Shown in pieces: positions 18,242 through 52,656 of a stretch of DNA of 64,000 bases (position 1 is its first letter; every line of letters starts with the position of its first letter). The translations under genes were made by a program, and so were the position numbers. Source of the stretch: Coemansia sp. RSA 487 (lineage: Eukaryota; Kickxellomycota; Kickxellomycetes; Kickxellales; Kickxellaceae); NCBI GenBank assembly GCA_027577595.1, contig JANBRJ010000035.1, positions 92,247-156,246 of the forward strand. Direction: 5' to 3'. The notes under the pieces are model-generated. The model made no database searches. It saw nothing but the letters and a program-made list of their open reading frames with translations, and was not told the origin of the DNA.

Positions 18242-18490
18242 TAGAATCGTCTGTTTTGCCGATCATTTTTTAATTTATTCATCGTACTGGATCACCAGTG
18301 CCACAATGTGGGCAGCTAAAAACGCCACAATGTGGGCTCCAATGTCTGTGCAGCAATGACAAACTGAAAGACTAGGATAAAGATCAGTGAAAACAGCCGA
18401 CTTGCTTGGGGAGAGCGACTGGGACGAAGCTTCTTGGGGGCTTGAGCCAAACCATTTCCATATTTACACATTTGTCTATATTGGAAGGCT
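18242..18490 (+). repeat. Dispersed repeat, copy R1
   Basis: Shares a diagnostic chain of blocks with 22391-22690: TTTATTCATC, then TGGATCACCAGTG.CACAATGTGGG, then GACAAACTGAAAG, GTGAAAAC, GAGAGCGACTGGG and TATATTGGAAGG, in the same order and orientation, with indels between. The CACAATGTGGGC block occurs twice here. It lies 550-800 bp upstream of the FunK1 relic. Confidence 0.75.
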
Positions 18491-18883
18491 ACACAAGTAT
18501 TAGAAAGCGGTTGGAAGGGTCGGCTAGAATGTTTAAATATTCTTCAATGGCATTATGGTGCTGGAAAAGTGCTTGATGGTCCCTGGGCTGATAAATTCTG
18601 AAATTGTAAAAAAAACAGCTTTCTGCGTTGCACTGCGAGTTGACCGGACCATAGTGATCAAACAAGGCTATTGACCAGACTAATCAACTGGCCAGGCCAC
18701 GCAGCTGGTATTACCAAAGTGCGAATAGATAGGGAAGAGAGCTTGAGGATCCGACTAGGACCACAACAGCTGATGAAAAAGAAGCAAATAAGGACAAGAA
18801 GTGGGCATGGCTGGACTGGGTACCCTACCCTAATGGCCACGTGCCGAGGTTGGTGAGGCTGAGATGAGAAAAACAGCAACAGC

Positions 18884-18901
18884 AGTTGTATAAAAACAAC
18901 A
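18884..18901. promoter_or_regulatory. TATA-containing palindrome upstream of FunK1 relic
   Basis: GTTGTATAAAAACAAC is an imperfect inverted repeat (GTTG.TATA.CAAC) containing TATAAAAA at 18889-18896. It lies about 150 bp upstream of the ATG at 19041. Its complement resembles the TTGT.TTTATACAA elements at 5241 and 47581. Confidence 0.5.
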
Positions 18902-19040
18902 GGTCCACAGGCTTTGTTAAGGCATTTAGTCATGAAAAGACTGCGCAAATAAAAAGGCGCAAGCCCATCACTCTCTTTCTCTTTATTCTTCAAAGCCTTT
19001 GTACTATTCTCTTCTTTCCAATCGCACATTTCAGCAACAA

Positions 19041-21634
19041 ATGACAAATATTCAAAAGGCTGCCTCAGGCTCATCAAACGAGGAGCCTGCTCCCTATATT
19101 GTTGACAGGACAGGAGCCCCAAAGAAAGCACCGCGTGCGAAGACGAATCAATCGGGCAGCTCAGGTAAGTTGCCCTTTGAGCATAACTAGTGGTTCTCTG
19201 CCATGTAATTCACGAATGAAAGCAATATGCTAAATGTCTATTCCAGTACTTGTGTGTTTCAACTCTATTTAGCACCAAGCCTGTACAGCAAGAGTACCAA
19301 CCAAACGCCCCAGAAAAAATCGTCTGGCCATAGTAGCACTCTCCAGTTCAGAGGGCTTTCGAGAAAAGAAGTCACTGAGAAAAGGCGAAATGATGTGCGA
19401 AGCGAACTCGACACTCGTATTCTGACAGATGTTGCAAGCGTTATTGACCATGCTCAGCCCAGAGACCCCAAACTTGCTGAACGAGCATCGCAGATTTTCG
19501 AAGCCGTGGCTGCGCGCGTGGAGAAGTGTCTTGACGAGGCCAATCGCCTGAGTACAGTAGGCAATATCTAACAGAGCGATTGTACGGATGCGGACGGCAA
19601 CTTCTCTCCAGCGAGTGCTGCTCTGGCTGCTCTGCCTTGGACGCGGCCAGCGACATACAAGCAAAAGAAGCCGTTCGAATCTGAAAGGCAAATATACGCA
19701 CACATGTCAGCATTCATCCTACTTGTCGCACACTAGGTTAAGCAGGAGATTCCGGCCGTCCAAAGAGATACGGACGAGTGCAGGCTGATCCTGCCTTTTG
19801 AAAAAACGGACATCAGCCCCAGCGACGCCGACGATGACACAAGAGTTGACCTTATCTTGAGAACGCGCAGGGCGGGACGCAAAGTCAAACTGCAGCCAAA
19901 CCCTAGCTATGCCGGGACATTTTGCGTGGCTGAAATCAAGAGCAATTCGAGCACAAAGAATCTGAACGACGCACGCGTGCAACTTTTCGACTATTCACGA
20001 AACATCTATGCTAACCAGCATGACCGGCGCTTCGTGTGGGGGCTGACGTGCTGTGGTGAATCGGTCAACGCATACATCATTAGCAACTACCGAGCATATT
20101 CCTCCCCAGCGATAGACATAACAGATATTACCAACCGCAGAGAGCTTAGCCGCTTTCTCGTCGGTTGGTCGCTGTGCAGAAAAGGGCAGCTGGGTTTTGA
20201 TGAGACGATTGTGCTGCGTCCAGACCTGCAGTGCTACGAAATCCACGTCCCATCGAGAAATGATCCTGAGGTGTCAGTCCCGTATTACTTGACAGATGTT
20301 ATTATGAAGGCTGATAGGCTGTTCGGTCGCCACTGCCGCTGCTTCCTGGCCACGCCAAACAGACCCGAAGTGCCGGTCTCAGTGGAAACCCCGATCGTGC
20401 CCTCTGTCGTCATAAAAGATTCTTGGACGGTCTGTGGTACATCCGAAGAAGACGATGAGAACACTGGTTTGGAGGCCGAGGTTGAAGGACTTCGTATTGA
20501 CGACGACACTGAGTCTCCATTTTTTGGCCATCAGCACAGCTTGCGCTTGATACGCTCGTCGATACTGGCGAGGTGCGCAGCGAGATAAACATTCTAGACA
20601 AGATCAACAAAGTTCTCGGCAGCAATACCGATTATAACGGTCTGTATCCGACGCTGCTGAACGGCGGGTGGATTCTTCAACCATCGCACACCGGACAAGT
20701 GCTTGACTGCACGCGCGAGATCCTGTTTGGACTTCATGACGAGCAGAAAAGAAAACCACCATTTTGTTTCCATGTCCGCTACGCAATGGAACCAATTGGT
20801 GAGCCGCTTAATACCTCCAGGTCCGCCTCCGAGCTCATCGCCGTTCTCTACGATGCCATGCATTGCCACAAGGCGCTTAGCGACGAATGTACTATACTTC
20901 ATAGGGATATTTCGGAAAACAATATTCTTGTTGTTCGGGATGGCAGCGATGTCCATGGATTGCTTATTGACTTCGACTGCGCACTCGACCGATCGGCGGA
21001 AAAACCTCCTGGGCGCCCCGAACGAACTGGCACGCTGCCATTTATGAGTATCGGCAACCTAGCCAACTCAGAAATCCCACGCACGATGCTAGACGATTGG
21101 GAGTCACTGCTGTACCTAGTGTGCTGGTATGGTACGTTTGGAATTAACGAGAATTGCGAGGATCGGAACTGCAGCCATCACATCAACTAGTGGTGCGTTG
21201 GCTATGAGGAAGAAATAGCTGATCAAAAGCGCTCAGATCTTAGAACTATTGGAAATTTCCATTACAGCATTGCCAGAGATTTTGGCAAGCATGACAGCAA
21301 CGCTGGTGACAGCGAGCGTTTAAGTGAATTGGCTATCCACCTGCACAACATGCTGTTCTTTAATCCCCGGCTTGGTCATGTGCCGAAAACTCCACACCAC
21401 GGAACACAGATTAATCACGAAAACGATATAAACTCAATGCTTGACGAGGATGATGAATACGATGGTAGTGACATAGCCCTGGTGAATAACCCCGAGAACA
21501 CGGAGAAGCCCTCTAAACCCATTGACCCGTTTGAAATGCGCATTAACGAGGAACAGATGATATCAAAACATCTTCTAGCTGTACTTAAGCGCCATGCAAG
21601 ACAGGCGCGCAAGGAGCTCCAAATAGCCAAGTAG
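19041..21634 (+). pseudogene. FunK1-type protein kinase with N-terminal nuclease-like domain, decayed
   Basis: Exon 1 (19041-19164) and exon 2 (from 19273) flank a 108-nt intron (GTAAGT donor, TTTAG acceptor). Reading on, in-frame stops occur at 19569 (TAA), 19734 (TAG) and 21188 (TAG), plus one frameshift placed at a T6 run (20520-20525). The N-terminal domain contains VDLIL followed by FCVAEIK and QLFDYSRNIYANQHDRRFVWG, a PD-(D/E)XK-like pattern seen in FunK1 proteins. The kinase part keeps ILHRDISENNILVV, LLIDFDCAL, GTLPFMSI and WESLLYLVCWYG. Metal-binding DFG is DFD, as is common in this family. A continuing acidic tail ends at 21634. All three stops could derive from CAA or CAG. By family knowledge FunK1 proteins are expanded fungal kinases of unclear role. 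It is most likely non-functional. Confidence 0.8.
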
Positions 21635-22984
21635 CTTTATTACCTTTGTAGCTTTGTTCATTAAAAACTCCAACCAATAACTGCTCTAGTAGCAAGTAAA
21701 TGAGAGTTTATTCGTAAATTATTGTTTTGCAGGTCTTTTCGCACTTTGCGATCTTTGTGTCGCTTGTTTCATCAGAAATGTGGCCGTCCTCGTCCTGTTG
21801 CTTTTTTAGTGCTTGAAACATCCGAACTACAGACAACGACGACTAGCAATTACAATAATGTTTGGTATACAGTGAGATATGTTGGTGGCGTTGGAAGCAT
21901 TCTAGTTAATATGCTTTTGAGCGATGCTTACATTTCGTGTGGTTCATCTGTGGATTCAGTCTAGGCAGTTGACTCTGACAAGCGAGGCGACAGGCAGTAC
22001 ATGTCGTTTTCGGCACAGCCCTGCATATGTAGAAAGCCTCAGCATCTAGATCAGTGTGCTTGTCTTTGGAGGTATCCCATAGCATGGCATGGCTGCTACA
22101 GAACGTCTTTTTCATGTTCGTTGGATTTAGTGAAGCAGTGCGTGCGGAGGGTATAGAGTGGGACATGGCTAATGGCAACAACGGAGCGAGTGAAGAGATA
22201 AACACACCGCATCCAGAGCCACTGTGGGCGAGTCTTCACAAAATTGTACATAACTCTAAATGAATCTTTCCTCTAAAGCATCGACTGTTCACCACTTTTG
22301 GAGCTGCCAGCACATTCGCCGCTTTTAGCTCCTCTCATTTTTCTCCAAGCCATTTGATCAAAATAGCAGAGCATATTTTCTTTGTCAACTAAGAAATCGT
22401 TATTGCCGGTTTTGCTGGTCTTTTTTGTTTTAAATTTATTCATCAAACTGAATCACCAGCGCCTCAGTGTGGGCGCCAACGCCCTGGAGCAACGGCAAAC
22501 TGAAAGGCTAACTGAAAGGCTAGTGAAAACCGGACTTTTTTTTTTAGGAGAGAGCGGCTGGGCGAAGAGAATCATGGGACAAAACTTTTTGGGAGTCTGG
22601 CAGCAGCGGCCAGAGGCTTTTGCCTGGAGTCGATCCTGGGATGTTGACTCACACTTGATGACATATACGTGTATATTGGAGGAACTGGCTCTCCCGTCCA
22701 ACTATGACCTAGCTCCCTTTAACAGTGCCTGGAGCCGGAGTCAAACTCGGACCAGCAGCATGCAAGCACTACGCTCATGTCCATTAGGATCTTTGCCAAC
22801 CATTTTTACAATGCCTTTGTTTGTTCGCACAGCTGCAGAATCAAGAGGATTTCCAAACAGTATTTAAGCAAGCCAGCGAAAGTGACAGCATCTGCATGTC
22901 ACTCCTTGTCTCTCTACTTCTTATCGTTGGTATTGTCCCTTCACATATACCTTTATCGAGCCACTTCTAGCCACTACACAGCCA
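21635..22984. other. Spacer between FunK1 and DUF4246 relics
   Basis: 1.35 kb without a called gene. 22391-22760 is the longest dispersed-repeat copy. 21906-22205 has a 99-codon minus-strand frame containing several cysteines (YICRAVPKTTCTACRLACQS), but it has no ATG-supported model and no known domain. The rest is AT-rich. Confidence 0.4.
22391..22760 (+). repeat. Dispersed repeat, copy R2 (longest)
   Basis: Aligns in its first 300 bp with 18242-18490 on the same strand. Its last two thirds (22480-22760) align with the complement of 47190-47475, including near-identical blocks such as CAGCAGCGGCCAGAGG, TTTTGCCTGGAGTCGATCCTGGGA, CAACTATG.CCTAGCTCC and GGAGCCGGAGTC, given here only as short anchors. 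It lies about 250 bp upstream of the DUF4246 relic. Confidence 0.85.
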
Positions 22985-24635
22985 ATGTCACTCTTATTTA
23001 TTCCTAAAGAAATACGAACCAAAGCCGTTGGCCAGGTCAGTCAAGTCGCCGCTCAGATCGCCTGTTGAAAGGTATATTATCAAATCTAGCGCTGAAATCC
23101 GCAAGAACCCAAACTGGATAGACTTGGTTGATAACAAAGAGGAGCGTCAGCGTTGGGCTGATCTGACAGCAGAGGAATTTGGTACGAAACCAACCGACAT
23201 GGAGTATATATTTGAAAAGCTTACGTACTACAAGTCTCTTCAAGGAAATTGCCAAGGCACAATGGTTCTAGAAGGCGCCAGAATGGTGTGTGTAAATGAT
23301 GTTCCAGACGATAACCAGCTGTTAAAGGAAGTCAAGCATTACGCAGCTATTCTGGAAGCTCATCCCAAGCAAAAGATGGAACTAAAGGACAGTGCCACCC
23401 TGATGCTCATCGATCCACCACTACTCTACCCGCTTGACTATAAGCTGTCACATCTGCTACAAAGCCCAATTGAATCGCCAGATGCTGCGCTCAAGGTCCG
23501 TAATTTGGGCGATAGACCTGGATCATTTGAGGCGTGAGCCAAGGTCGTGGCTAAAATAAACAAGGGTATCAAGACAGAAGACAGTATCTACACAGATTGT
23601 GATCAGAGTAATAGCTTTTGCTGGCTGACAACTAAAATTCAAGTCAATGCGGATGGGTCGGCACACATAAAGCCGTATATCAACAAGTTGCATCCAATTC
23701 AACACTCTGCCTTTTACTTGACTCTCTCAAAAGGCCTCGAAAGAACCATCCCGTTAGTCGAGCAAGTACTAACAGATCTAGTCCACCCTACCAATTTGCG
23801 AGTACCAGTATATGACGACGATTGTGTTTAATTTACTGTGCCATATCCATGTGCTGGCGACTCAGATGAAATTGATCCGGAAGTCGATGACGATCATGAA
23901 GATGCTGCATTTGTGGAAACAGGCCATCCATCAGTTCCTTATAATATGCGTGGAAAAGAGCTTTAAGTTGTCATCAAGATGAAAAACGTGTATTTGGAGC
24001 CTGAAGATACAGAATATGACATACGCAAATGGCAAAATCCAGATATTCTTAATGACAACATCGTAGCTACGTCAATGTAGTACTATGATATGGAGAATAT
24101 GGATACTTCAGATATTTAATTTCGAGGCCCCGTTGGTAAGTACGGAAAGTTTGACTATATCAACGACATATTAGAGAAAAAGGCATTTTCGTATGTCTAT
24201 GACGAATCAGACGATGTCAGTAAAGGGTTTGGATACGAATAGGTTGCTGGAAGCACCGAAAGCAAGAGTGGTTGCGTTGTATGCTTTCTAAACTTGTATC
24301 AGTATTCCGGGCCATCAGTAAAGCTGGCCGATGCATCCAAGTCTAGGCATGTAAAGATGCTGCTTTTCCATTTTGTTCATCCAGGCATACGTCTCCCATT
24401 GACATCGATTGTAGCACCGCAGCAGCAGAACTGGCGGGTTAAAGATACATTTACTGCACTTCCACTCAAAGACCTTTCTGGGGAACTTTTCCACATGATC
24501 CAACAGAAAGTCATGATGCCAATGTCTCTAGAAAAAGTACATGGAAAGCACATTGATCCAGATACCCTTAGAGAACGTTATGAAGGCGAAAATGATTGCT
24601 ATGATACGTATGTGCAGCATAGTGGAGCGATTTAA
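22985..24635 (+). pseudogene. DUF4246 family protein, decayed by in-frame stop codons
   Basis: From about 23001 to 24635 a single reading frame carries recognisable DUF4246 features in order: RYIIKSSAEIRKNPNW, a W-containing segment before VNADGSAHIKPYINKLHPIQH, LERTIPLVEQVLTDL, PYNMRGKEL, VVIKMKNVYLEPEDTEYD, LNDNIVATSM, YYDMENM, SKSGCVVCFLNLYQY and PSVKLADASKSRHVKMLLFHFV, ending near PPQQQNWR and a helical tail. The frame is broken at 23535 (TGA), 23829 (TAA), 23964 (TAA), 24078 (TAG), 24117 (TAA) and 24240 (TAG), with no frameshift over about 535 codons. The natural stop is 24633-24635. The start is unclear: an ATG at 22985 is in another frame. The family is fungal and of unknown biochemical role. 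Confidence 0.8.
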
Positions 24636-25422
24636 TAAACATGTTCTGGCTATTACTGCTGTTGCTAATATTCTATACACTTTTAAAGGCTGCAGTCATT
24701 GTCCAGTGTTGAGATATTTTGGAGATTAAATGTTTTCTTGCTATAATCAATATTCTAACTAGTATTTACAAAGGCAACTCTAAAAACAACGTAAAATCAT
24801 GAGTAGCTCTTCTTCAATTAAGCTAGCCTAACTTGGGTAAATGTTAGCGTTAAATGCTGGTAATGTCAATTTAGTTAGCAGACATCTTGGTTGGGTTAGA
24901 TCTAATATATCTTATGTGTGCAAAATGTTAGTGTAAACATGTTTGCTTTAAACTTGGCTTTCCATACACATGCTACTTTTTGTAATAACTGGCAAGAATG
25001 ATTGAAACAAGTATGCGTTCTCTAGCCAGGATTTATATTGTAGATGTGTTCCCAGCTTTTACTAAATATTTTTATTATTTGAAATACCACTTTATAAATA
25101 TGACTGGATACAGGTATAGTTATTTGCACTGTACACAAGGCGTATTTAGGCTCACTTAACTTGGGCGAGTATTGCGTTTGTCCATGGTCTCATTACACAG
25201 GAGGAAACAGAATCCATTGCCTCTTGATTATATCGATTTAAAGATCAAATCAAAGCGATAGTAAAAATTCGTGATAAACAAGATGCTTTGAAAGATCTGC
25301 TTGTGATTGTTTTAGTGGAGCGATTTTCTTTCTGTTCCTCATTTTCCAGCTCACTTAATTATTAATAACAACGTTCAATTCACAGTTTAATTGGAAGCGG
25401 CATATTCAAAGGAGCTATAGAA
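24636..25422. other. AT-rich spacer
   Basis: 787 bp of low-complexity AT-rich sequence between the DUF4246 relic and the TMEM70-like gene. No open frame, RNA gene or repeat was recognised. Confidence 0.6.
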
Positions 25423-26181
25423 ATGAGCGTCCACAAATTTCTCCGACCAGCACTAGCCAGCCCGTTGCGGCTCGGTCTCCAGTGCGCTACTGGTAAAGAG
25501 CTGCACAGCGCCATACTGAGGATGCAAACGCAAAACAAGCACCAGACACGTGGAAATGGCTTGAGATGTCGCAGATACAGCTCAGCCCAGCCAGATCAGT
25601 ACAGGATGGTCCCAGTGTACGAGGGCAGTATATCAAAGGCCGCACGCTTTATGAAACTAGCGTCCGTGACCTCGCTGATAGGTGCTTCTGCAGCGGTTCC
25701 CTTTTACTTTACAGGTGATAGCGAAGTGCCGTCGGCGGCACGTATGGTCCTGGCATTAACTACAGTGGGGATGACTGGATCGTCAACACTTCTGGCTGCC
25801 TGGGCACTCAAACCCTACATCACAACGCTTCACGTGGTGGCTAACGAAGACGATACCAGCGACAGTTCGATCGAGGTGGACGCTGATACGCCGCTTCTTG
25901 TAGAAACACTCACATTTTTGGCAAAGCCGTATACTCGTCTTGTGTTCCCTGAACAGCTTGCATCAGCAAGCGTGCCGATGGCTTCGTGGGTTGTTCGGCA
26001 GCCGTCAGAGGCGCTGGTCGCCAAGGCGGACGGAATCCTGGCGCAGATCAACAAGAACCGCAAGAAGGGAGACCAAATCCGACTTGCACAGAAAGGCGAC
26101 AAGCTCTATGCCTTCACGCAGGGCCAAATAAGCGCATTGATGGCAAAGATCATTGCGGTATCGCCTGCCCAAGAGCAATAA
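25423..26181 (+). CDS. TMEM70/TMEM186/TMEM223-type mitochondrial inner-membrane protein
   Basis: A 252-residue protein with a long basic, acid-poor N-terminus (1-52, ending RGNGLRCRRYSSAQ) resembling a mitochondrial presequence. VPVYEGSISKAARFMKLAS precedes two hydrophobic segments at about 78-96 and 107-129, joined by a short loop (TGDSEVPSAAR). This hairpin with the YxGxxx..R.K lead-in is the layout of the TMEM70-like family, whose animal members help assemble respiratory complex I or ATP synthase. The C-terminal matrix-side domain ends in DKLYAFTQGQISALMAKII. The exact family member cannot be fixed by eye. Convergent with the Ras-GAP gene, 122 bp between stops. Confidence 0.7.
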   Translation: MSVHKFLRPALASPLRLGLQCATGKELHSAILRMQTQNKHQTRGNGLRCRRYSSAQPDQYRMVPVYEGSISKAARFMKLASVTSLIGASAAVPFYFTGDSEVPSAARMVLALTTVGMTGSSTLLAAWALKPYITTLHVVANEDDTSDSSIEVDADTPLLVETLTFLAKPYTRLVFPEQLASASVPMASWVVRQPSEALVAKADGILAQINKNRKKGDQIRLAQKGDKLYAFTQGQISALMAKIIAVSPAQEQ

Positions 26182-26303
26182 ACACAGCTTACATACCGTT
26201 TTGCTAATAGAAATAGAAAACTAGAGAATCGCGATAATTAATATATGAAAAACGAAAGGACAAAAGATAAGCGAAGAAGCAAAAAGAAACTTTTAGAGAT
26301 AGC

Positions 26304-29300
26304 CTATAGCATCTGGTCAACAACCAGGCTGGTGAGTTCTGCAAGCTCACGCCACTGGGCCATGTTGCCGTCAAAGGCGATGACGCGGCCAAAGCCGCCA
26401 AAGCCAATGCGAGCCAGATACTCTTTATGAGCCGGAACCATGCTGCGGTCAAACGACGTGTCAGCGTTGCTCAGCGAGGGCACAGACGAGCGCTTGCTAA
26501 GCACGCTCATCGTGTCGTGCGAGCGGGTGCTGTTCAGCGCATGGGTCCTTTCAGACGAATCCTCGCGGATGCGCGCCGGCGGAGCATTAGATACGCGGTG
26601 CCCAGCAATGCTGGACGACATCGCCGGGCTGCTCGGGGTATGCGCGCTGTACGCAGAAACGGCAGCAGCGGTGGATCCAGCAACAGCCGCGCTAACGGAC
26701 TTGCGCGTGGTGGCGGCAATGGCATCGACAGTCAGGCCATGCGCAATGTCGGCCAGGTTTGCGCCGTTGTGGAGCAGGCTCTGCTGCTGGATAAACACGT
26801 CGGGGTCGAAGTGCGGGCGGGTGATGGCCAGACGCACCATGACGTCGTGCAGCTTGTGCGTCAGCTTGGAGCTGTGGCTGTTGTGGATGGTGCTGGTCAT
26901 TATCGGTGCCAGCGACTCCATCACCAGCAGACTCATTGTTGCATCGACCCACGCAATGCTGGATGCAAGGATGCTGTACAGGATCATTGTCTCCTGCTCG
27001 GCGCGCGGCTTGTGCATCATGGCTGCAACGATCGATGGATACAGGATGTAGTCCGACTGGCATTTGCGCGCAATGTCCAACTTGTGCGTCTGCTCTAGCA
27101 GCCGCACATAGCCGCCACGCTCGATGCTGCTCTTGGTGTCAGGCGAAACCGTGAATCCAGCTGTCGAGAACACATGGACCAGCTCCTTGCGGACACTGGC
27201 TGTCGGGATGACCAGCACAAGGTACGGCAGGATCAGATCGTACTTGCGCTCTGGGTTCGTTGTATCAGCCTGCTGCCACTTGCGGCAGCCTGAAGCCACG
27301 CCGATTATCTGCAGAACCACCTCATACGCCTCGTCCTTGGTACTCATGTCCTCCAGACCACGCAGCAGCAGCAGCGACAGCGACACTGCAAACGAGTAGC
27401 GGAAGCTGATTCCGACAGTCGCGTCGATCTGGTCGCACGCCTTCTCGACGGCCACGCGCGCTGACATCAGGAAGTGCTGGAATCCGTCGCCGTTCTCGGG
27501 CAGGAACGCACCACACGCCTCAAGGGTGCGAATGACTTTGGACACCAGGCTCAATCCGACCTTATATAGAGGAAGGTGGCCGACCTGCATGACCGCCACG
27601 CCGACCCAGAACAGAGACGCCAGATATGACGAGTCTGGCGGCAGGTTGCCGACCATGTTCACCAGGCACAGAAGCACAGAGATCGGCAGGGAGTCATCCG
27701 TCTCGCCAAATGAGGCAAGCGCGCCGCGCAGTGTCGCAAGCGTCTGATAGAGCAGATCGTCGTCAACCTCGTCGTACGCCGTGAGCTTTCCAAGCAGCAC
27801 AAAGGCACGCGGCTGGATCGCCGGGTTGAAGACAAATGTCGATGCAGTGACCAGCGTAGTCCAGCGCGCGCGCCAGCTGTTGCCGCGCCCGCTGCTGAAC
27901 GCCGGATTGTCCATAATGCGCAAAAATATCTGTGCCACACGATCGACGCTTGCCAGCGACTCGCGCGGCGACTCCATCGAGTGTGACGAGCCGCCGAGAT
28001 CGTCCTTGAACTCCATCAGCGCCTCCGGGTTCAGGGTTGACGCTGCGCCGCCGCGTGTGTACGACGACGCAATGAACGTCACTGCGCTGGTCGACTTGGC
28101 GCGCAGCCCAAATGTGAATTTTGTTCTGGACTGGATGAGCTCTGCCAACTGCTGTGCAAGCTGTGCGTACGGCGAAAGAAGCTGGCTGCCGTTGCCAGCC
28201 TCAGCGCCAACCGTGTCGGTTGTTTCCTTGAGCTGGCGCACCGGGTTGCCAGCAAAACTGTTGGCACCAGTGATGGCCGACGAGAACGTCTGGTCGATGA
28301 TCACGCCGTTGCACTGCGTCAGTGCCAGGCTGTGTACCACATGCATGACAATGCCATGGAGTGTGGCATGGATCAGTCCTGCTCCGGACTTCAGCAGCAT
28401 GCACGTGACGAATGCAACATCAGGTAGATACTCCTCAGCGAAACTGCAGTTGGAGAAGCTCATCGTTAGCAGAAGCCGCATGTACACCGCAATCTCGGGC
28501 CACAGCTGGTGCGTCGCAATGTCAATAACGCTCATCGAGCATGTCTGCGCCACAAGCTTGCGTAGCCGCACAATAAGCTTGTTGTACCGTGGGTTCTTTC
28601 CTGCCAGCGTCGCAAGCACGTCGGCTATCAGCTCGGTCTCCACAGTCAGTGCGCCGTACTCCAGTGCAACGGTCACAAGAATGTCAAGCACAATGTCTGT
28701 TAGCTCCTCGACGCGCGCAATAAGCGACCACACGTGTTCCTTGAAGTGCATATACATCGTCGGCTCCTTCAGGTGCAGCCGGGTCAAGCTGCGGATGATG
28801 TCTTGCGTGCGGCTAAGCGCATCGGGGGTAGACACCGTGTCGTGCGTAAACTGGCCCAGGCAGAGCACCCACGGCTGAATGTAGTGCAAGATCCACGGCT
28901 TCATGTTCTGCGCACACTTTGTGAACGCAAGCAGCGCCTCTGAAAGCAGCTCCAGCGTCATGTCAGGCGCACTGATGCTGAGCCTGGTACAGATACGGAA
29001 GATGAACTGAAGCGGGTTTGGCGGCAAGCAGAGGTCGGTAGCAAACGCCAGCTCATGTCCGACATCCAGATTGAATGTCGCCACAACAGAAATCAACATC
29101 CGATACGCCGAGATACGCAATGTCGCGTTCTCCGAGCCAGCATTCAGAAGCGCGACGTTTAGAAGAGTGCCTGGCACATCGGATGGGCGGATGACACGCT
29201 CTTGCACAGCCGGGGCGTTCGGATGGTTTGTGTACCTCGAACGTGCGCTGCGGATAGCCTTGTACAGCAGCTCCCACTTGGGGCTTGAGAACATGATCTG

Positions 29301-37265: not shown

Positions 37266-37349
37266 GTTTGTTCGTTTGTTTGTTTGTTTATATCTGGCTG
37301 AGCCCGTTGCTCTGCAGGCGTTCCTCTCTCTCTTTCTCTCTTTCTCTCT
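37266..37349. repeat. TTTG and CTCT/TTTC microsatellites
   Basis: Five or so GTTT/TTTG units at 37266-37288 and a CT-rich run with CTCTCT and TTTCTCTC units at 37322-37349, in non-coding sequence. Confidence 0.85.
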
Positions 37350-39517: not shown

Positions 39518-39687
39518 CCCCTCCCAAGCACAAAGGCGACTAGAAATACAAAGAGCAGCTGAGTTGTCACACCCCTCCGGGTATCATAAAACATAGAGCA
39601 CGCGGGCAAAGATGCAGCCCATTCCAAAAAGAGATGTTTTGCTCTTCGCAGTCTTCAAGATTGGAAGCTGGGCAGAGCCCCTCCCCC
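39518..39687 (+). promoter_or_regulatory. Cluster of CCCCTCC boxes
   Basis: CCCCTCC occurs at 39518, 39572 and 39678 within 170 bp, about 550-710 bp upstream of the ATG at 40231. The core matches the yeast stress-response element (CCCCT), but binding in this organism is unknown. Confidence 0.35.
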
Positions 39688-40230
39688 AATCAACATGGAT
39701 TCTCCTCTTGGCTCCACGAAGCGGCGGAGAACTGCGCCTACCCACCCAAAAAGATAAAAAAAAGCACACTGGCATCGCCGCCTCCGATTCGCACAAGACC
39801 CCGCCCTTCTCCTCCACTGACCTCCGGGCCCAGCGCTCTCGTAGCGGTCTTTGTGGCCGTAGGTAAGGTGTCTTTCTGCGCCTCTGCCCACGCCTCGCTC
39901 AAGCCGCCCGCAAATAGAGAAGGCAAGGCTTGAGGGATGTGTCTTGGTTCCACGCGCATACCACGCTTTTTTTTTCTCTCCCTCGTACTTTTCCCCTTTC
40001 ACAAATACTTGCAACTATTTTCATGAAAGCCTCTCCCCCTTTCTGCCTTTCTTCCATCACTTGCTTTTCTTCTATTTCCATTTGCTCGCCCATTTGGTTT
40101 TTTTTCTTTTTTCATTGTTGCTACTCTCCTGTTCTAATTTGCCTCTTTCATACCCGCTCTTTCTTGTTCTTGTTGTACAACACTGCTTTCCAGTCGTTAC
40201 GAGTCAGAAATACGTCCGGGCGCTCGGCCA

Positions 40231-42080
40231 ATGACCAACACCAACAACACGCCGAATGCGCAATACATTCTGCCGTCCAAAGAGCTGGACTGGTGGTCCG
40301 AAGGTACCGTATCACCACCCATCTAATGCATGTCCTCCAGCAGACGCCTTGTAATGTGCTATCGTTTACTATGCCGTGCCCTCCTTGCCTGCTTTAGCAG
40401 CTTTTTACTGTATGTGCCTTCCTGGGCCCTGAGCTTGTCTGCGCTCTCATCGTCCCCAGCGCACACTATACGCTCCCTCTTCCTCCTCCAAGCTTGTTAT
40501 TTCTTGCTTGTTGCTCAAGCCAGCCAGCCTTGTGTTAGACGCGCGCTTTCTTTGTCTCAAAACTGTCCTTTCTCCCGTAGCGCTCTTCCTTCCGCTTGCC
40601 CCCTTATCCTCATCTTCATCTTCGTCTTCAGCTTCATCCTTGAAAATTCGGCAGGAATGCTCCAGCTGTCATGAGGAAATGGATGAAAGACAAAAGGCGC
40701 GTTTTTTTACTTTCCAAAAAGTAGCAACCAAAACACCGTGTGTGCATTGCCCATCTGTTTATGTTTTGGCTGCAGAATCCCCCCTTGTGCTATTGCGTCT
40801 AACCATGCTGTGCACTTTTCCTTCCCACTTTATTTGCGCGTGCCACTATCCTCACACGACATATCGCTCGTTGCTCTACCGCTTTTTCTTTGGCTGCCTT
40901 CCCACACCAAAACAGTCTCGTCTAGTCGTCTTTCGTCGGCGCGGGGAGAGGTGTAAGGAATGGTGGCTGTGCTTTTATGTCTTATAATATTCTTCCCCCG
41001 CTTAAACTATGCTGGCATCATTCTCACGCACGCGTTCGCGCTAAGATGAAACATTCTGCACCATCTCTTGCTCTCGCTTTTGTAGATGCCATCGTTCGCT
41101 TCGGAACAAACACACAAAAGTCGACTGAACCTGCATGGCAGGACGTCGGCGCAAACGTCCTACGCATGGACACGCTCTACGACGCCACTTTCCACAGGTG
41201 GCTCAAGTCTGAAGAAAACGTCCTGACCATTGCAATCCACCTGCAGCGCATTTCCAACGAGTATCCGCTTGACCGCATCATCAACGCCCTCCGCTGGCTG
41301 GTCTCCTCATGGCGCGTCGAGTCAACCGCTGTTATCGTCCGGTATGTTACTGCCGACTGGGCCACTCCTCAGAATCTCCCGCCCCAGCCCACCAGCAGTC
41401 CATTCCGCCCAGACATCAGCCGTCACGCATCGCTGCTATCCGACCCTGGCGTTCTTTCCGGCGAGTCTCGGCGAGGCGTCCTTGTCCGCGAGCTGACCAA
41501 GGACTGGACCAGCCAGCAAATTGCCCAGCTTGTCAGCATCCTTGCTGTGAACCTCTGGTGCGAGCGGCCTCACCTGGAAGCCTTTATTCGCACCCTGGTT
41601 TCTGACTGGGACTTTTGCCGCCTTTCAAGCTTTTTCTCGTATATAAGCAACCAGCTCTGTCTGGACTACCGCGTGAAGGTCACCATGCTGCAACAGGCGG
41701 CCCGTCGCAATGTATCCAGGCTCTCCCTGAAGCGCGCTCGCAACGCAGCAAAGCCTGCCGCTTCAGTTGAGGTTTCGGCGTCAAAGTCAAAAGCTGCTGC
41801 AGATCCCGAAAACGATAACAGCGATGATGGCGACAACGATACCGAAAGCAACAAGCGCTTGCGCACCGACACATCTGCAGCTGACGCTTCCGAAGCCACA
41901 GAAGAATCCTCGTCATCGTCATTGTCTCAGCTTAGACACGACAACAGCCAAGCTTCGCCAATGGCCACAGAGCCGTCGCGTGCTGTGCCGGAACCCGCCA
42001 CAGTATCCGACCATTCTGCGGCGGATTTATCCCGAGCATCAAGACTGCCTACATCTCCATCAGCGGCTGACGTCTCGTGT

Positions 42081-42116
<36 letters not shown>

Positions 42117-43463
42117 GCATCGGCAGCATCAGCCACAATCCCTTCCTCTTCTTCCACTCCCAGCACAGCTGAACATCTGTCAAACCCAGCTGCTGCATCC
42201 TCATCCTCACATTCCTCTACAAACATTTCCTTTAACAGCGCCACGCAGGCTGCAAGCCCGTCTGATTCTGTATCATGCACCTTAGACAGTGGCGCACCGA
42301 TGTCGCTCTCGGTACGCGCTGCACAGGCCGGCCGTATGCCTGCACCTCTAACACAGGTCTCGGCTCTGTCGCGGGCATCCAGTGTCACTGCAGCAACATC
42401 AGCAGCAGCAACAACACCCTCGACACCGGTGGTATCGTCGTCGTTATCATCGCAACCAACAGCACCGCCTTCGGCCGGCTGCCGCACAAGCGAGCTTCAG
42501 ACATCGGTTTCAACAACAGACCTGACGTCCATTCCATACAACACACCGTTGCATGCTGCCGCGCAAGGCAGTCGTCAGCTACAGCTACAGCACCATCGTC
42601 ACCAGCTCGGACAGGCAACAGGGTCTGCATCGGCTGCCACTGGGCGGCGCACACGGTCACGGAACAACACAGGGTCTGCTGTGACAAACGCGTCGACATC
42701 GTCGCTTGTGTCGCCGGCCACTTGCAATGACCGGTCGTCGTCGTCGTCGTCAGCGTTGCTTGTACGGCGTCCACTGACACCACAGACAGTCAACAGCCTA
42801 TTTATTGTTCATGCCGACGGATACCGCCACCAGTCGCCCGACTCTCCAACACTCCACCTCGACCATAGATACAGCCGGAGATACCCGCAGCCATTGACGC
42901 CATCGCGCTCTTCGGCAGCGCTGTCGATGGACAGCACCATTGTCTCTGGCGGACACTCCACTTCAGCAGCAGCAGCAGCATCATCGGCAGCAGCAGCATC
43001 GGCAGCTGTGGTTGTAGTAGCAGACTCGGCTGTTGCTTCAACTTCTGTAGGAAACAGTAGCAGCCACTACAGCAGCTCTGCCAGCATTGCTAGACAGGCT
43101 CTGCGGCTCCATGCAGCCAGCGTCAGCGTCAGCACAGCAACAGTAGAGTCACAGGCGCTTTTGACGGGAAGTGGAAGCAATATGCCACAGTCACAGCAGC
43201 TGGAAACAGAGCAACGTAGCCACCAGCCGCCACAGCAGCACCAACAACAAACCCAGCAACAGCAGCAGCAGGACTTTCGCGGACGCACGGCCAGCGAGTC
43301 AGAACTTGGGCAGTTTGACGGTCCAGCATCAACACACTTGTCGTCGCTACCGTTACCGTCCGACTCGTCAGCAAATGCAGCCAACGTGTGTGGACGGCCA
43401 TCGACAACAGCGCACTATGACGTGCTGGGAATCGTAATTGAGTCTGAGCACAGCACCATTTGA
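40231..43463 (+). CDS. Unrecognised protein with helical DW repeats and long low-complexity tail
   Basis: Proposed model: exon 1 at 40231-40303 (MTNTNNTPNAQYILPSKELD then WWSE), exon 2 at 41086-43463, giving 816 residues. The junction is in phase (codon GAG/AT gives Asp). The intron would be 782 nt and pyrimidine-rich, with a weak GTACCG donor and a good TTTTGTAG acceptor. The alternative is an intronless start at the ATG at 40977. Residues 25-235 are ordered and helical, with three spaced boxes of the form xhRxhxxDW near 116, 165 and 199 (VRYVTADW, VRELTKDW, IRTLVSDW). KRARN-type basic residues follow, then an acidic patch (DNSDDGDNDTES) and over 500 residues rich in S, T, A and Q. I do not recognise the family. 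It could be a nuclear regulator, but that is speculation. Confidence 0.6.
42087..42119. repeat. CAACAG hexanucleotide repeat in coding sequence
   Basis: About five tandem GCAACA units run into GCAGCAGCA, encoding alternating Ala-Thr then Ala in the low-complexity tail of the preceding gene. A second CAG-rich tract (polyQ) lies at 43224-43271. Confidence 0.85.
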
Positions 43464-44010
43464 CCCGAATCCTCTGTGTAAAAGCCTTTTGCCTCTGCTG
43501 GGGGTTTTGGTGGTGGTTTCTTTTGTCCCTTGCGTTTTTTTTTCAGCATCCTGTTTCTTGTAGAATTTTTCTTTTTGCTAGAAAAGAAGGGGGACGCGCC
43601 TCAAAATTTTCTCTAAATAACGTACTTTATCCATCTACAGCGTACGCAATGTTACCAAAAGGGTTATCTCTAGACTCTTGAAGACAAAAAATTAGCAAGA
43701 CGATTATTCTTGAAAAGCAGAAAAGAGGATAAGGGGAGAGGCATGTTAGTGATGTGTGTGGTAATGTGACCCATGGTGGACAAAGAGACATTCTTCCTTG
43801 CGTTCTAGTCCCTGCAAATGGTGTAAGCAGATGGACGCTTTCTTGGCTTGGCGTTCTTGTTTCTGTTCTTTTCTTTTCTTTTCTTTAATATCTTTTTTTA
43901 CATACCTTGCTTTTCTCTATTATAGCTACCTAGTCTTTACTGCTACAACAATAATTAAACGGCTATCACGTAGACTTCACCAACACCTAAGACGTCCGAA
44001 AGAAGCAAAG
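43464..44010. other. Spacer with Pbi2-like gene promoter/leader
   Basis: 547 bp without a gene. 43850-43925 is strongly T/C-rich, followed by TTATAG at 43920, so a leader intron or a CT-rich promoter for the next gene is possible. Open frames here are T-run artefacts. Confidence 0.4.
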
Positions 44011-44286
44011 ATGGCGGACACTGTAGAACAGCAACCACAAACGGAAACCCCTTCCTCTAACAAGCTGACGATTATTCGATTCAAGGACGACGCAACTGCC
44101 GAGGACCGCAGCAAGATCGAGAAGGCAATCATCGACAATGGCGGCACAGTCGAGAAGCGTATGGATCTGATTGGAGCCATTGGAGTCAAGCTAGGCGATG
44201 CGCATGCCGCCAACATTAGCTCCTTCCACGAACAGCACAATGGTATTGACTTTATGGAGGAAGACAATACTTTACATACCCAGTAA
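44011..44286 (+). CDS. PBI2: Inhibitor I9-type protease inhibitor (Pbi2/proteinase B inhibitor-like)
   Basis: Small 91-residue protein. After a polar N-terminus (MADTVEQQPQTETPSS) it has the I9 propeptide-like beta-alpha-beta fold: LTIIRFKDDATAEDRSKIEKAI, GGTVEKRMDLIGAIGVKL, ISSFHEQHNGIDFMEEDN, ending LHTQ. The EED..xHT end matches the inhibitory tail of yeast Pbi2, which blocks vacuolar subtilisin-type proteinase B and also acts in vacuole fusion. No signal peptide is seen, which fits a cytosolic inhibitor. The start is the ATG at 44011 with A at -3. Convergent with PER1, 122 bp between stops. Confidence 0.85.
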   Translation: MADTVEQQPQTETPSSNKLTIIRFKDDATAEDRSKIEKAIIDNGGTVEKRMDLIGAIGVKLGDAHAANISSFHEQHNGIDFMEEDNTLHTQ

Positions 44287-44408
44287 GCAAGCGAGCTACA
44301 TGGGGGAGGGAGGAATTCCGCTAGAGCACGTTATTATTTAGTCCTTTTGCCTTTTACTGTTCAAGAAAGGAGAAAGAAAAGAGAGCATGTAAAAAAGACG
44401 TAAATTTA

Positions 44409-45395
44409 TTAGCTCTTGCGTAGCTGATCCAGACGCACATCCCAGTTGGCATCGTTGATGAGGTAGTCGTACCAGTGAGCCACGATGGGAATGGTGGCGG
44501 CATGCCACAGCGAATGTGCGTCAAAGATATCGCATAGCGGCGGGAAGTCAAAGGCTTCGAGCGCAAAGGCCATATCGGTAAGCACGATCAGCATGGCTGG
44601 TTTCCACCAGAACGGCTGGCCGTTGCGGTACGCCTGGAACGTAACAACAAACCATACAAGGTTGCACAGCAGGCCGACCATGGCGTTTGCCATCATGTTG
44701 TATCCATAGTCGAAGCGCACGAAAGACAGGTAGGCAACGTGCAATGCGTAAGGGATTGCGCAGGCGATGGCCAGACCCTTGGTTTCGGACCACGTGCTCA
44801 GCCGCAGGGCGCGCACGGTGCCCAGGAAGAAGATGTACAAAACGTTGAGTCCGGCCGAGAAGTAGTCCAGCTTCTCGGTCAGCGGGAAATCCCTGATGTG
44901 GAAGACCGTTGAGCAGAGCCACGTCCACGTGCCCAGAACCACGAAAATGCTGAGCCACTTGCGCATCGGGTGCGTTTCTGGCACTTGCTTGCGCACTGGC
45001 GTCCACCCACGGATATGCATTGCGCCGTTCAGGATGCTGAATATGACGCTGGCCGGCTCCTGGACACCCAGGATCCGCACAAATGGCCACTTGCCGTGGT
45101 ACTGGTGGATGCGGCCCTGGGGCGACCGCTGCCTGGCCTGGTGCGTCTGCTGGCGCTGGCACTTGTAGTCGCAGTTGCTTTCGCACGTCCAGAAAAGCGC
45201 GCGCAGGTACAGGGGCAGCGGCGAGGCGGTGTCCCCGGTGCATTCGTCGCGCACACATGTGCGTACGCATCGCTGGAACCCGATCTGCCGATCCCCCGAA
45301 GACGCTATGGTTGCGTGCGCAAGCAGTAGCAGGACCGTCGCCAGTGCTGCGCACAGTCCCCACTTCCGCGCTCTCCGCCGTGCTCCAAGTATCAT
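44409..45395 (-). CDS. PER1: Per1/PGAP3 GPI-anchor remodelling protein
   Basis: A 328-residue membrane protein of the CREST superfamily, which removes the sn-2 acyl chain of GPI lipids in the ER so that saturated chains can be installed. An N-terminal signal (about 1-31, LCAALATVLLLLAHATIASS) precedes a luminal cysteine-rich segment (CVRTCVRDEC, CESNCDYKCQ). Several transmembrane helices follow. Family-conserved patches are GKWPFVRILGVQEPASVIFS, STVFHIRDFPLTEKLDYF (His and Asp of the putative catalytic centre) and DAHSLWHAATIPIVAHWYDY near the C-terminus (His residues). Length is close to human PGAP3 (320) and yeast Per1 (357). It is divergent from Nup43, 636 bp apart. Confidence 0.95.
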   Translation of the reverse strand: MILGARRRARKWGLCAALATVLLLLAHATIASSGDRQIGFQRCVRTCVRDECTGDTASPLPLYLRALFWTCESNCDYKCQRQQTHQARQRSPQGRIHQYHGKWPFVRILGVQEPASVIFSILNGAMHIRGWTPVRKQVPETHPMRKWLSIFVVLGTWTWLCSTVFHIRDFPLTEKLDYFSAGLNVLYIFFLGTVRALRLSTWSETKGLAIACAIPYALHVAYLSFVRFDYGYNMMANAMVGLLCNLVWFVVTFQAYRNGQPFWWKPAMLIVLTDMAFALEAFDFPPLCDIFDAHSLWHAATIPIVAHWYDYLINDANWDVRLDQLRKS

Positions 45396-46031
45396 CGATA
45401 TTACTTTTTGTTGTTTGTTTACTTTTGTTGCGCAAAACGAGAAGGGGGAGGCAGTAGACAGTATGATATGTAAATATAGACGATGGTTGTATAAATGGTT
45501 TTACACAGTAGACATGAAACAAAGAAAGGAAAAAGGGGGGAGAAAAGGAGAGATTGGGAGATGAAAAAGAAGACGGGTTCAAAGTTTAAGGTTTGGTGTT
45601 GTGCTGCATTCATCCACTCCATGATTTTTTCACCTCCGCATCCAAAACTGAAAGCTAATGCGACATATGGTCAACATCCCCTTTCGTTGTATATATAATA
45701 CCTATGTATAAAAAAGGATGGTTCCCCCCACATCTACCAGAAAAAAACATGAAAGAGTGCATAGCGGGGGTACCAAGAGAACTAGAGACCCAGCAGATGC
45801 CAGATCACATGTACTGGTCCCAATATTGTCTAATAGTACAGTTCGCGATCCCCAACAGCAGCATTTCCCAGCTCTCGCTGTGCGCTTCTGTATCTGCCAA
45901 AAATAACACCTCCTCACTCCGCGCTTGTACTATTTTTTATTTTACTTTATTTTTTGCACTAGGCCACCAACCATCTATTTCCCAGCAACCACACAGCCCT
46001 TTGCCCAAAAGCAGCAGACAATAGCGATCCA
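45396..46031. promoter_or_regulatory. Divergent spacer PER1 / NUP43
   Basis: 636 bp between two start codons pointing away from each other. 45500-45560 is A/G-rich on the + strand. A TATATATAA run is at 45690-45698 and TATTTTTTATTTTACTTTATTTTTT at 45932-45956 (given as a description of a T-rich tract). No gene is seen. Confidence 0.4.
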
Positions 46032-47117
46032 ATGTCACTGCAGGTACAACCCGTCGCTCGAAGAATCACCGCGGTGGCCTGGCTCCCACCACGCGCAGGA
46101 AACGCTTACAACGACGCTGACCTCCACTTTGTCACCGGCTCAGGTGGTAAGCACAGAGAGCTCGTTCTATGGACCACAGTCAATCCCGACTTTGACAACG
46201 ACACCGAGGGCGCCCAGGATAGTGCAGACGAGCGGCCACTGGCGTCGCTGATAGCCAAGGTCGCGCACGACGGAGATATCCACGGCATTGCTGCGTTATC
46301 CGACATTGTCGCCACAGTATCCTCGTTTGGCACAATCTCCATATACCAAGCCGACCACGGCCATTCGGATGACACATCGCGTCTAGCGCTCCGCGAATCG
46401 ATCACGGCACACCGATTCGCGAACAGTGAGCGTGCATCGGGTACAGCGCTGGCAATGCAGCCTGTGGACTCGCCTGACGCTGAGGTCGCCAGCTGCGGCG
46501 AGGATGGGTGCATCGCGTACGCGCAAGTATCGCGACTCGACGCGCTCCAGCAACACGAGGTCGACAGCACTGTAATCACTGGTATTTGTTGGCCCACGCC
46601 GGCACAAACCGCCATATCGACACGTGGAGGCCAAGTTAAGCTGTTCGACCGCCGCACGCCCGCAGACGTCTCTGCCGTCTTCGTCAGCCCGTCCACTTCG
46701 TATGCTTTTGAATGCATTGCCGCGCATCCGTCGCAGTCGTTTAGGCTGGCTACGGGCACGGATTCTGGTGCGGTGTTGCTTTGGGATACAAGGAACTTGA
46801 AGAGCCCAGCCATGGAGGTCTTCAATGTACATGGGTCGAATGTCTGGGATGTCCAGTTTGATCCGACCAATTCTGGCAGAATCGTCTCGTGCTCTGATGA
46901 TGCTACTTTGGCTGTCACTCAGTGGTCCACCGATGGCGCTGATGCTTCGTCGTCTGCTAGGGATGTGCGCCGCGTCTCCAGCTTCTTCAACGTCTTGTCC
47001 GTCAACTGTCTCGATGTCTGTCCGTTTACTAGATCAAGCATTATTGTTGCTGGCTCAGACAGCGGGAATTTGTTAATTGAGAAATCCACTAATGATGACG
47101 ATTTCCAGCTATTCTAA
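46032..47117 (+). CDS. NUP43: Nup43-like WD40 nucleoporin
   Basis: A 361-residue, intronless WD40 propeller. The opening RRITAVAWLPP, followed by a glycine/serine loop and ELVLWTTVN, matches Nup43, a member of the Y (Nup107-160) complex of the nuclear pore scaffold. Further blades: HDGDIHGIAALSDIVATVSSFG, AEVASCGEDGCIAY, AISTRGGQVKLFDRR, FRLATGTDSGAVLLWDTRN, SNVWDVQFDPTNSGRIVSCS and SVNCLDVCPFTRSSIIVAGSD, the last close to the Nup43 C-terminal blade. Length is close to human Nup43 (380). Budding yeast lacks Nup43 while many other fungi keep it. Confidence 0.85.
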   Translation: MSLQVQPVARRITAVAWLPPRAGNAYNDADLHFVTGSGGKHRELVLWTTVNPDFDNDTEGAQDSADERPLASLIAKVAHDGDIHGIAALSDIVATVSSFGTISIYQADHGHSDDTSRLALRESITAHRFANSERASGTALAMQPVDSPDAEVASCGEDGCIAYAQVSRLDALQQHEVDSTVITGICWPTPAQTAISTRGGQVKLFDRRTPADVSAVFVSPSTSYAFECIAAHPSQSFRLATGTDSGAVLLWDTRNLKSPAMEVFNVHGSNVWDVQFDPTNSGRIVSCSDDATLAVTQWSTDGADASSSARDVRRVSSFFNVLSVNCLDVCPFTRSSIIVAGSDSGNLLIEKSTNDDDFQLF

Positions 47118-47164
47118 AAGGGGTCCGGAGGTAGGAGTTGGGTTAGAAGTCAAAATCATTTTTG

Positions 47165-47475
47165 AGCTGATCCCACTGTGCGCGCGTGTGGTGCTGGCAC
47201 AGGCTCGACTCCGGCTTCAGTCACTGTTGAGAGGAGCTAGGGCATAGTTGGGCGAGAGAGCCAGCTCCCCCAGCACACGTGTGTATGTCGTCAAGCGTGT
47301 GCCAACGTCCCAGGATCGACTCCAGGCAAAACCCTCTGGCCGCTGCTGCCAAACCTCTCAAGAAGCTTCGTCTGTGCTTCTCTTCGCTCCAGTTGCTTCC
47401 TTCCAAGCAAGTCGGTTTTTTCGCTAGCCTTTTTGTTAGTCTTTCAGTTTGTCATTCCTCCACAGACATTGATTG
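47165..47475 (-). repeat. Dispersed repeat, copy R3 (3' part, inverted)
   Basis: The complement of this segment aligns with 22480-22760 over nearly its full length and with 18340-18450 at its start (GTCTGTG, GACAAACTGAAAGACTA, CCGACTTGCTTGG, CGAAGCTTCTTG). The 5' part of the repeat is absent on this strand but is present nearby in the opposite orientation (R4). Confidence 0.85.
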
Positions 47476-47510
47476 AAGGAAGTTTGGTATTATGAGGAAG
47501 TATATATAGT

Positions 47511-47570
47511 TTTTTTTTGGGGAATTTGTTCATCATGCTGAATCGCCAGCATCACAATGTGGGCACCAAG
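47511..47570 (+). repeat. Dispersed repeat, copy R4 (5' part)
   Basis: Aligns with 22424-22480 and 18270-18345: a T-run, then AATTTGTTCATC, CTGAATCGCCAGC and CACAATGTGGGCACCAA. It lies back to back with R3, as if one repeat copy had its 3' part inverted or two truncated copies had met. Confidence 0.8.
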
Positions 47571-47580
47571 CACAGTACCA

Positions 47581-47608
47581 GAGGTTGTATTTATACAAAC
47601 ACCCCTTG
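47581..47608. repeat. Palindromic TTTATACAAAC element, copy 2
   Basis: Nineteen of the first 20 bases match 5241-5260. It directly follows R4 and lies about 230 bp upstream of the first recognisable coding segment of the AAA/PDDEXK relic, so it could be a core promoter. Confidence 0.55.

Positions 47609-50420: not shown

Positions 50421-52656
<2,236 letters not shown>

What the first reader, a model, noticed from the sequence alone, without database searches (positions are those of the whole stretch)
18242..47608. One dispersed repeat precedes three unrelated decayed accessory genes
Copies at 18242-18490, 22391-22760, 47165-47475 (inverted) and 47511-47570 share ordered blocks of clear similarity. 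Each lies roughly 250-800 bp upstream of a different accessory family: FunK1 kinase, DUF4246 and AAA/PDDEXK. No copy was noticed next to the housekeeping genes. Either these genes travel as cargo with a non-autonomous mobile element, or they share a promoter cassette that spreads by recombination. Element ends could not be defined; R3/R4 suggest an internal inversion or head-to-head truncated copies.
Basis: partly seen in the sequence, partly recalled or inferred. Interest (0 to 1): 0.75.

Follow-up and report, generated by a model that had tools for sequence, protein, structure and literature searches.

The report
Old low-copy SINE near accessory genes
The repeat looks like an old, inactive, low-copy retroposon of the SINE type in a small fungal genome; it often sits near certain decaying gene families, most likely because it was copied along with one of them and because old mobile-element debris survives in such regions, not because it carries or switches on those genes.

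Summary
The repeat is real. R1, R2 and R3/R4 are copies of one SINE-like retroposon of about 0.4 kb, with a B box in the head, a common A-rich 3' end, 5'-truncated copies and one clear target-site duplication. R4 is R3's own tail, inverted in place. Searches found 21 copies in 17.8 Mb (a lower bound). Association with FunK1, DUF4246 and AAA/PDDEXK genes exceeds chance: 11 of 21 copies lie within 2.5 kb of a hit, against 2.7% of the genome. It is not specific: an unrelated LINE fragment shows 11 of 32. Eight SINE copies share flanks and fit one insertion duplicated with a FunK1 block; six of these follow the FunK1 3' end. Only 10 of 87 family loci have a copy within 2.5 kb. Six of 21 copies, R1 and R3 among them, lie within about 110 bp after housekeeping open frames. 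Cargo is not needed and a promoter cassette is contradicted. One result is unexplained: within the duplicated blocks the SINE differs more between copies than the non-coding DNA beside it. Verdict: an ancient fungal SINE family, probably undescribed, in accessory regions shaped by duplication.

The parts
18264..18429 (-). R1: SINE copy, 3' half only, with a tandem duplication of about 26 bp; the 5' part of the element is deleted
22425..22790 (-). R2: nearly full-length SINE copy, between FunK1 and the DUF4246 pseudogene
47135..47471 (+). R3: 5' and middle part of a SINE copy
47472..47569 (-). R4: 3' tail of R3 plus about 30 bp of its flank, inverted in place; against the C45 copy R3 and R4 abut at position 2411/2413
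18440..18725 (+). spacer shared with the C43 and C89 loci, where it lies next to the SINE head
18725..18935 (+). fragment of the 3'-terminal region of a decayed LINE (repeat 'P'), cut at its 3' side where FunK1 homology begins
18935..22285 (+). FunK1 (PF17667) pseudogene block, 84-87% identical to blocks in C45, C89 and C43
22971..24635 (+). DUF4246 (PF14033) gene remnant with in-frame stops
47768..50521 (+). broken gene of AAA/PDDEXK type, 74-76% identical in DNA to a paralogue in C18 that has its own SINE copy upstream
63703..64000 (-). another copy of the LINE 3' region, at the contig end

Best explanation
R1-R4 are relics of one low-copy SINE family: a short non-autonomous retroposon of about 0.4 kb, transcribed by RNA polymerase III from an internal promoter and copied into new sites by a LINE reverse transcriptase acting in trans. 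Shown here: common ends, A-rich tail, B box in the head, 5'-truncated copies, one clear target-site duplication, and strong divergence between copies, so the family is old. Inferred: Pol III transcription and LINE-driven copying. The link with FunK1, DUF4246 and AAA/PDDEXK genes most likely has two ordinary causes. First, one insertion next to the 3' end of a FunK1 gene was multiplied when that gene was duplicated as DNA with its flanks: 8 of 21 copies share such flanks (shown), though the SINE itself has diverged more than those flanks (unexplained); a second shared context at FunK1 genes gives 2 more. Second (inferred, supported by one control), SINE and LINE debris survives preferentially in long intergenic stretches with dispensable, decaying genes, so an unrelated element shows the same association.
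For: SINE anatomy: 19 of 21 copies aligned; common 3' end; 5'-truncated copies; plurality head contains GGTTCGAATCC, an exact B box; target-site duplication in C89b, 13-15 bp with one mismatch; 0 of 300 shuffles as good. Copy number; the 24-base tail pattern with up to 3 mismatches finds 14 sites and none for the reversed control. Duplication: FunK1 blocks; group A is R1, R2, C43, C89a, C10a, C45b, C51 and C28 (shared 3' flank, 5' flank or FunK1-3' junction); group B is C45a and C175 (690 bp shared). Association and control: within 2.5 kb of a family hit are 11 of 21 SINE copies (binomial 2e-12) and 11 of 32 LINE-P copies (5e-10), against 2.7% of the genome. 10 of 87 family loci (FunK1 7 of 55, DUF4246 2 of 15, AAA/PDDEXK 1 of 17) have a SINE within 2.5 kb. 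Housekeeping neighbours.
Against: In each of 6 pairs from the duplicated group compared, the SINE is less alike (73-82%) than the non-coding flank beside it (84-96%), with more transitions and more transversions per site; R2 and C89a are no more alike (74%) than R2 and unrelated copies. A plain single insertion predicts equal divergence. No copy is recognised as tRNA by ARAGORN (12 loci) or Rfam (8 loci), and the A box is degenerate. Only 1 of 11 copies tested has a clear target-site duplication; C10b (8 bp, 5 of 300 shuffles, not directly at the tail) is weak and 9 have none. The driving LINE was not identified. Grouped into 11 events by shared flanks (my judgement), 5 of 11 have a copy within 2.5 kb (binomial 6e-6), 6 of 11 within 3.5 kb, so duplication alone does not explain the association. 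The compartment explanation rests on one other repeat family only. The 55 'FunK1' loci include weak hits that may be ordinary kinases (the family search also rings in bacterial controls); of the 17 strongest loci 4 have a SINE within 2.5 kb, all in the duplicated block.
Confidence: 0.78

Rival explanations
1. Cargo model: FunK1, DUF4246 and AAA/PDDEXK genes are carried by a larger non-autonomous element of which the repeat is one end.
For: The FunK1 block of about 3.4-3.6 kb has SINE copies on both sides in C45 and in the window. An AAA/PDDEXK-type gene in C5 (L019) has LINE 3' ends on both sides.
Against: The SINE has its own ends and target-site duplication without any gene (C89b). What borders the FunK1 block differs between loci. 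77 of 87 loci of the families have no copy within 2.5 kb. No border common to the three families was seen in the loci compared.
Confidence: 0.05
2. Promoter cassette: the repeat supplies a promoter and spreads by recombination ahead of accessory genes.
For: R1, R2 and R3/R4 each lie 5' of one of the genes; LINE fragment P with a TATAAAAA lies directly ahead of the FunK1 block in the window, and its counterpart does in C43.
Against: In group A 6 of 8 copies follow FunK1's 3' end. SINE orientation relative to the gene differs (R1 and R2 opposite, R3 same, C18 opposite). The 5' edge of the FunK1 block with its own ATAAAA motifs is present in loci with other sequence upstream (C45, C89). C7 and C175 copies lie 3' of the gene.
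Confidence: 0.03
3. Pure co-duplication: all associations come from segmental duplication of accessory DNA, with no compartment effect.
For: 10 of 21 copies belong to two shared FunK1 contexts; C5/C7 share 670 bp and C111/C173 lie in like surroundings.
Against: R3 and C18, next to paralogous AAA/PDDEXK genes, look like separate insertions: homology of the paralogues stops at 47768, and distance and orientation differ.
Confidence: 0.1

Closest known systems
tRNA-related SINEs of fungi (AfuSINE2 of Aspergillus fumigatus, PMC5063351; abstract and section 18 read)
   Same: Low copy number, size range 140-493 bp, Pol III promoter features, an extended tRNA-unrelated region, short target-site duplications, location in intergenic DNA or close to coding regions
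   Different: No tRNA parent identified here; no sequence or age comparison with those families was made
LINE-derived effector family EKA of powdery mildew (PMC4641428; abstract read)
   Same: Retroelement debris and a multicopy gene family found together
   Different: There the genes derive from the LINE's own ORF1; here the genes lie outside the repeat
Lineage-specific FunK1 kinase expansions (PMC3203195; passages read)
   Same: FunK1 multiplied by lineage-specific duplication and enriched in non-syntenic regions
   Different: That paper concerns Onygenales; the passages seen do not mention a SINE linked to FunK1
Gene amplification by a transposon that captured the gene (histone H3 in a hAT element, PMC6710886; abstract read)
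   Same: A mobile element and a gene multiplied together in a fungus
   Different: There the gene was captured by the element; here it lies outside the element's ends

Membership tests
SINE | Short element with fixed ends, dispersed as separate copies | tested here: met
   common 3' end at 14 tail sites; 5' end shared by several copies; flanks differ for C38, C89b, C18, C10b, C124 and C34
SINE | Internal Pol III promoter, B box | tested here: met
   plurality head has GGTTCGAATCC; exact in C28, one or more mismatches in the other copies that keep the head
SINE | Internal Pol III promoter, A box at tRNA-like spacing | tested here: inconclusive
   read from the alignment: TGATCCCATTG 32 nt 5' of the B box in the plurality line (3 mismatches to the A box), and its counterpart 45 nt 5' in C45a; the scan did not single it out
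SINE | A-rich or simple-repeat 3' tail | tested here: met
   A-rich sequence after the common 3' end; about 12 A in C124
SINE | Target-site duplications | tested here: met
   clear in 1 of 11 copies tested (C89b, 0 of 300 shuffles), weak in C10b (5 of 300), not found in 9
tRNA-derived SINE (subclass) | Head recognisable as a tRNA | tested here: not met
   no tRNA by Rfam (8 loci) or ARAGORN (12 loci); so filed as SINE, not as tRNA-derived SINE
SINE | Partner LINE with the same 3' end | tested here: inconclusive
   The one LINE found (P) ends differently (read); other LINEs were not searched
MITE | Terminal inverted repeats | tested here: not met
   best ungapped match of the two ends is 9-10 of about 20-25 bases in 3 copies (C89b, C38, C89a), no inverted repeat
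gene-carrying mobile element | Gene lies between the element's ends | tested here: not met
   SINE ends leave the genes outside; what borders the FunK1 block differs between loci

The most novel reading that the evidence does not exclude
Dispersed SINE copies in this fungus change faster than the unique non-coding DNA beside them, because copies exchange sequence by ectopic gene conversion or because repeats are targets of a mutation process; the same exchange between SINE and LINE copies around FunK1 genes (SINE-FunK1-SINE in C45 and the window) helped to duplicate and reshuffle the FunK1 blocks.
Probability: 0.15. Interest if true: 0.45.

Novelty: new member of a known kind. Interest (0 to 1): 0.23.

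Why it matters
It defines one SINE family in this fungal genome and shows how a striking 'repeat ahead of three gene families' pattern can arise from duplication and survival of debris. A search for Kickxellales, genome and SINE together found no paper in the library; that search is narrow and the host placement was not tested. It also documents FunK1 copies spreading as DNA blocks with their flanks, in line with lineage-specific duplications reported for other fungi (PMC3203195, passages). The faster change of the SINE inside those blocks would be worth a proper test.

Tried and rejected
Promoter cassette and cargo models: see rivals. Repeat P was first taken for a promoter element or solo LTR because of its TATAAAAA; rejected because it is the 3' region of a longer repeat with RT and RNase H remnants, both below Pfam's cut-off, and lies close to housekeeping genes. 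Sharp ends of the FunK1 block at 18935 and 22284 first looked like element ends; rejected because homology among C45, C89, C28, C51 and C10 goes on past the right end and the left flank differs by locus. Twin priming for R3/R4 was considered and rejected because the A-tail lies between the two parts. Rfam and ARAGORN gave no tRNA. A sequence model of the tail could not be used on this genome. Rows dropped before counting: for the SINE, one 35-bp match outside the element at C6:71358, and R4 is counted with R3; for P, C139:28042 (spacer only); for FunK1, 11 of 79 hits below the cut-off. In the P control 3 of 32 copies came from fetched loci only (2 of these 3 near a family gene); without them it is 9 of 29 (binomial 5e-8).
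Full report
What was checked. The similarity between the four stretches is real and far above chance. The window is contig C35, 92247-156246, of a 17.8-Mb genome in 184 contigs. I combined five DNA searches with one pattern search for the 3' tail. Together they give 21 places: R1, R2, R3/R4 in the window; C45a, C45b, C89a, C89b, C10a, C10b, C38, C43, C175, C28, C51, C18, C7, C5, C111, C173, C124 and C34 elsewhere. The pattern search found 14 tails and no reversed-control match; the 14 are among the 21. The tool scores only the best candidates, so 21 is a lower bound.

What the element is. I aligned 19 of the 21 copies with flanks; C124 and C34 were found later and looked at singly. Copies that keep the 3' end share GATCCAGTATGATGAATAAATTT (with differences) followed by A-rich sequence, and the longest copies share a 5' end, GGAAATRGGTTGAAAATC. 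Copies C18, C7, C5 and C10b are cut at the 5' side. The plurality head holds GGTTCGAATCC, an exact Pol III B box (the box motifs are recalled). C89b is flanked by CAACTAAATCCGA and CAATTAAATCCGA, directly outside the two ends; none of 300 shuffles did as well. Ten other copies were tested the same way: C10b has a weak candidate (5 of 300), nine have none. Pairwise identity of 13 copies in that alignment runs from 54 to 78%, and from 66 to 78% without R1 and C18, so the family is old. No terminal inverted repeats were seen in 3 copies. These are the features of a SINE. A tRNA parent could not be shown: Rfam (8 loci) and ARAGORN (12 loci) find no tRNA and the A box is degenerate.

Orientation and the R3/R4 puzzle. 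The SINE reads on the minus strand at R1 and R2 and on the plus strand at R3. Against the C45 copy, R3 covers positions 2676 down to 2411 and R4 covers 2348 to 2413 in the other direction. The two pieces are complementary and abut, so the 3' tail and about 30 bp of flank were most simply inverted in place. R1 has a tandem duplication of about 26 bp and lacks the head.

Why it sits near FunK1. The FunK1 block 18935-22285 is 84-87% identical to blocks in C45, C89 and C43, and shorter pieces of its 3' end lie in C28, C51 and C10. The SINE follows that 3' end in the window (R2), C89, C10, C45, C28 and C51. C43 and R1 share the SINE-spacer-LINE-FunK1 arrangement with each other and the SINE-spacer-LINE part with C89. 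I read these eight as one insertion carried along by DNA duplication. C45a and C175 share 690 bp that include the SINE and are a second case.

A result against the simplest form of this. In 6 pairs from the duplicated group the SINE is 73-82% identical while a non-coding flank beside it is 84-96% identical; both kinds of substitution are raised. R2 and C89a are 74% alike, no more than R2 and unrelated copies, although the non-coding stretches between the FunK1 frame and R2 are 85-87% alike. Constraint on the flanks, ectopic gene conversion between SINE copies, or a mutation process aimed at repeats could each do this; I could not tell which.

Is the association specific? Hits to the three families (68 FunK1 hits above cut-off, 20 DUF4246, 24 AAA/PDDEXK), widened by 2.5 kb, cover 2.7% of the genome. 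Of 21 SINE copies 11 fall there, and of 32 copies of an unrelated LINE fragment (P) 11 fall there too. Grouped into 11 events by shared flanks (my judgement), 5 of 11 SINE events have a copy there (6e-6), 6 of 11 at 3.5 kb. So there is an excess that duplication alone does not explain, but it is not a property of the SINE alone. The binomial figures assume independent, evenly placed copies and overstate the case. From the other side, 7 of 55 FunK1, 2 of 15 DUF4246 and 1 of 17 AAA/PDDEXK loci have a SINE within 2.5 kb. Weak FunK1 hits may be ordinary kinases; of the 17 strongest FunK1 loci 4 have one, the four of the duplicated block.

Housekeeping neighbours, measured to open frames, introns not modelled. 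R1 begins about 100 bp after the RNA polymerase large-subunit frame, R3 18-48 bp after a WD40 frame, C89b about 110 bp after a Mod(r) frame, C5 about 75 bp after a WD40 frame, C10b about 50 bp after a PfkB frame, C124 about 45 bp after an ABC transporter frame; C18 lies about 170 bp before a WDR55 frame (positions; families). That is six of 21 within about 110 bp of the 3' end of such a frame.

Repeat P. Window 18725-18935 is part of the 3' region of a LINE with at least 32 copies. RT (E 8e-6) and RNase H (E 6e-4) remnants, both below Pfam's cut-off, lie upstream of one copy (L026). Of the P loci whose neighbours I scanned, P lies within 0.3 kb of PIG-M, NAPRTase, Saf4, NOB1, prenyltransferase and sugar-transporter frames, about 1.1 kb from MFAP1 and 3.7 kb from a lipin-type frame; others lie near FunK1 and AAA/PDDEXK genes.

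Comparison with the literature. Low-copy tRNA-related SINEs with Pol III features and short target-site duplications are described in Aspergillus fumigatus (PMC5063351, abstract and section 18). FunK1 expansion by lineage-specific duplication and enrichment in non-syntenic regions is described for Paracoccidioides (PMC3203195, passages). Effectors derived from LINE ORF1 in powdery mildew (PMC4641428, abstract) and histone H3 amplified by a hAT element (PMC6710886, abstract) are different cases. Six library searches were made; FunK1 with 'transposable element' listed 6 papers, Kickxellales with genome and SINE none.

Conclusion. This is an old SINE family and a region of duplicated, decaying accessory genes.

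Noticed in passing
window 18725-18935 and 63703-64000; loci L009-L028: A decayed LINE with at least 32 copies of its 3' region; the window's right end, which is the contig end, lies inside one copy, and contigs C45, C69 and C162 begin in or within 60 bp of one.
   Followed up: partly
SINE copies versus flanks in the FunK1 blocks (window 22425-22781, L010, L029, L030, L012, L004, L009): In 6 pairs the SINE is less alike than the non-coding DNA beside it, with transitions and transversions both raised and lower CpG in the SINE of several copies.
   Followed up: partly
L019 928-5239 (C5:26227-30538): An AAA/PDDEXK-type gene with long open frames lies between two LINE 3' ends; a direct duplication of 1.3 kb (91% identical) brackets it.
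   Followed up: no
C10:183454-186025 and C9:3220-7403: A DUF4246 match lies next to an AAA/PDDEXK-type match on the opposite strand in both places, perhaps a duplicated pair.
   Followed up: no
SINE body, plurality positions 91 and 159: A second B-box-like motif GGATCGACTCC, 68 nt after an A-box-like TAGTTGGACGG: the SINE may be a dimer of two tRNA-like units.
   Followed up: no
L030 1459-1996 (C28): A FunK1 3' remnant begins 8 bp after the last codon of a VHS/GAT-domain open frame.
   Followed up: no
window 47565-47600 and C6:71358-71392: A 35-bp match at 94% just outside the SINE, of unknown nature.
   Followed up: no
L029 6415, L012 6070, L030 2060: In C45, C51 and C28 the SINE is cut at an internal T run and joined to the FunK1 flank through an AAAA shared by both sides (read), most simply one deletion.
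   Followed up: partly
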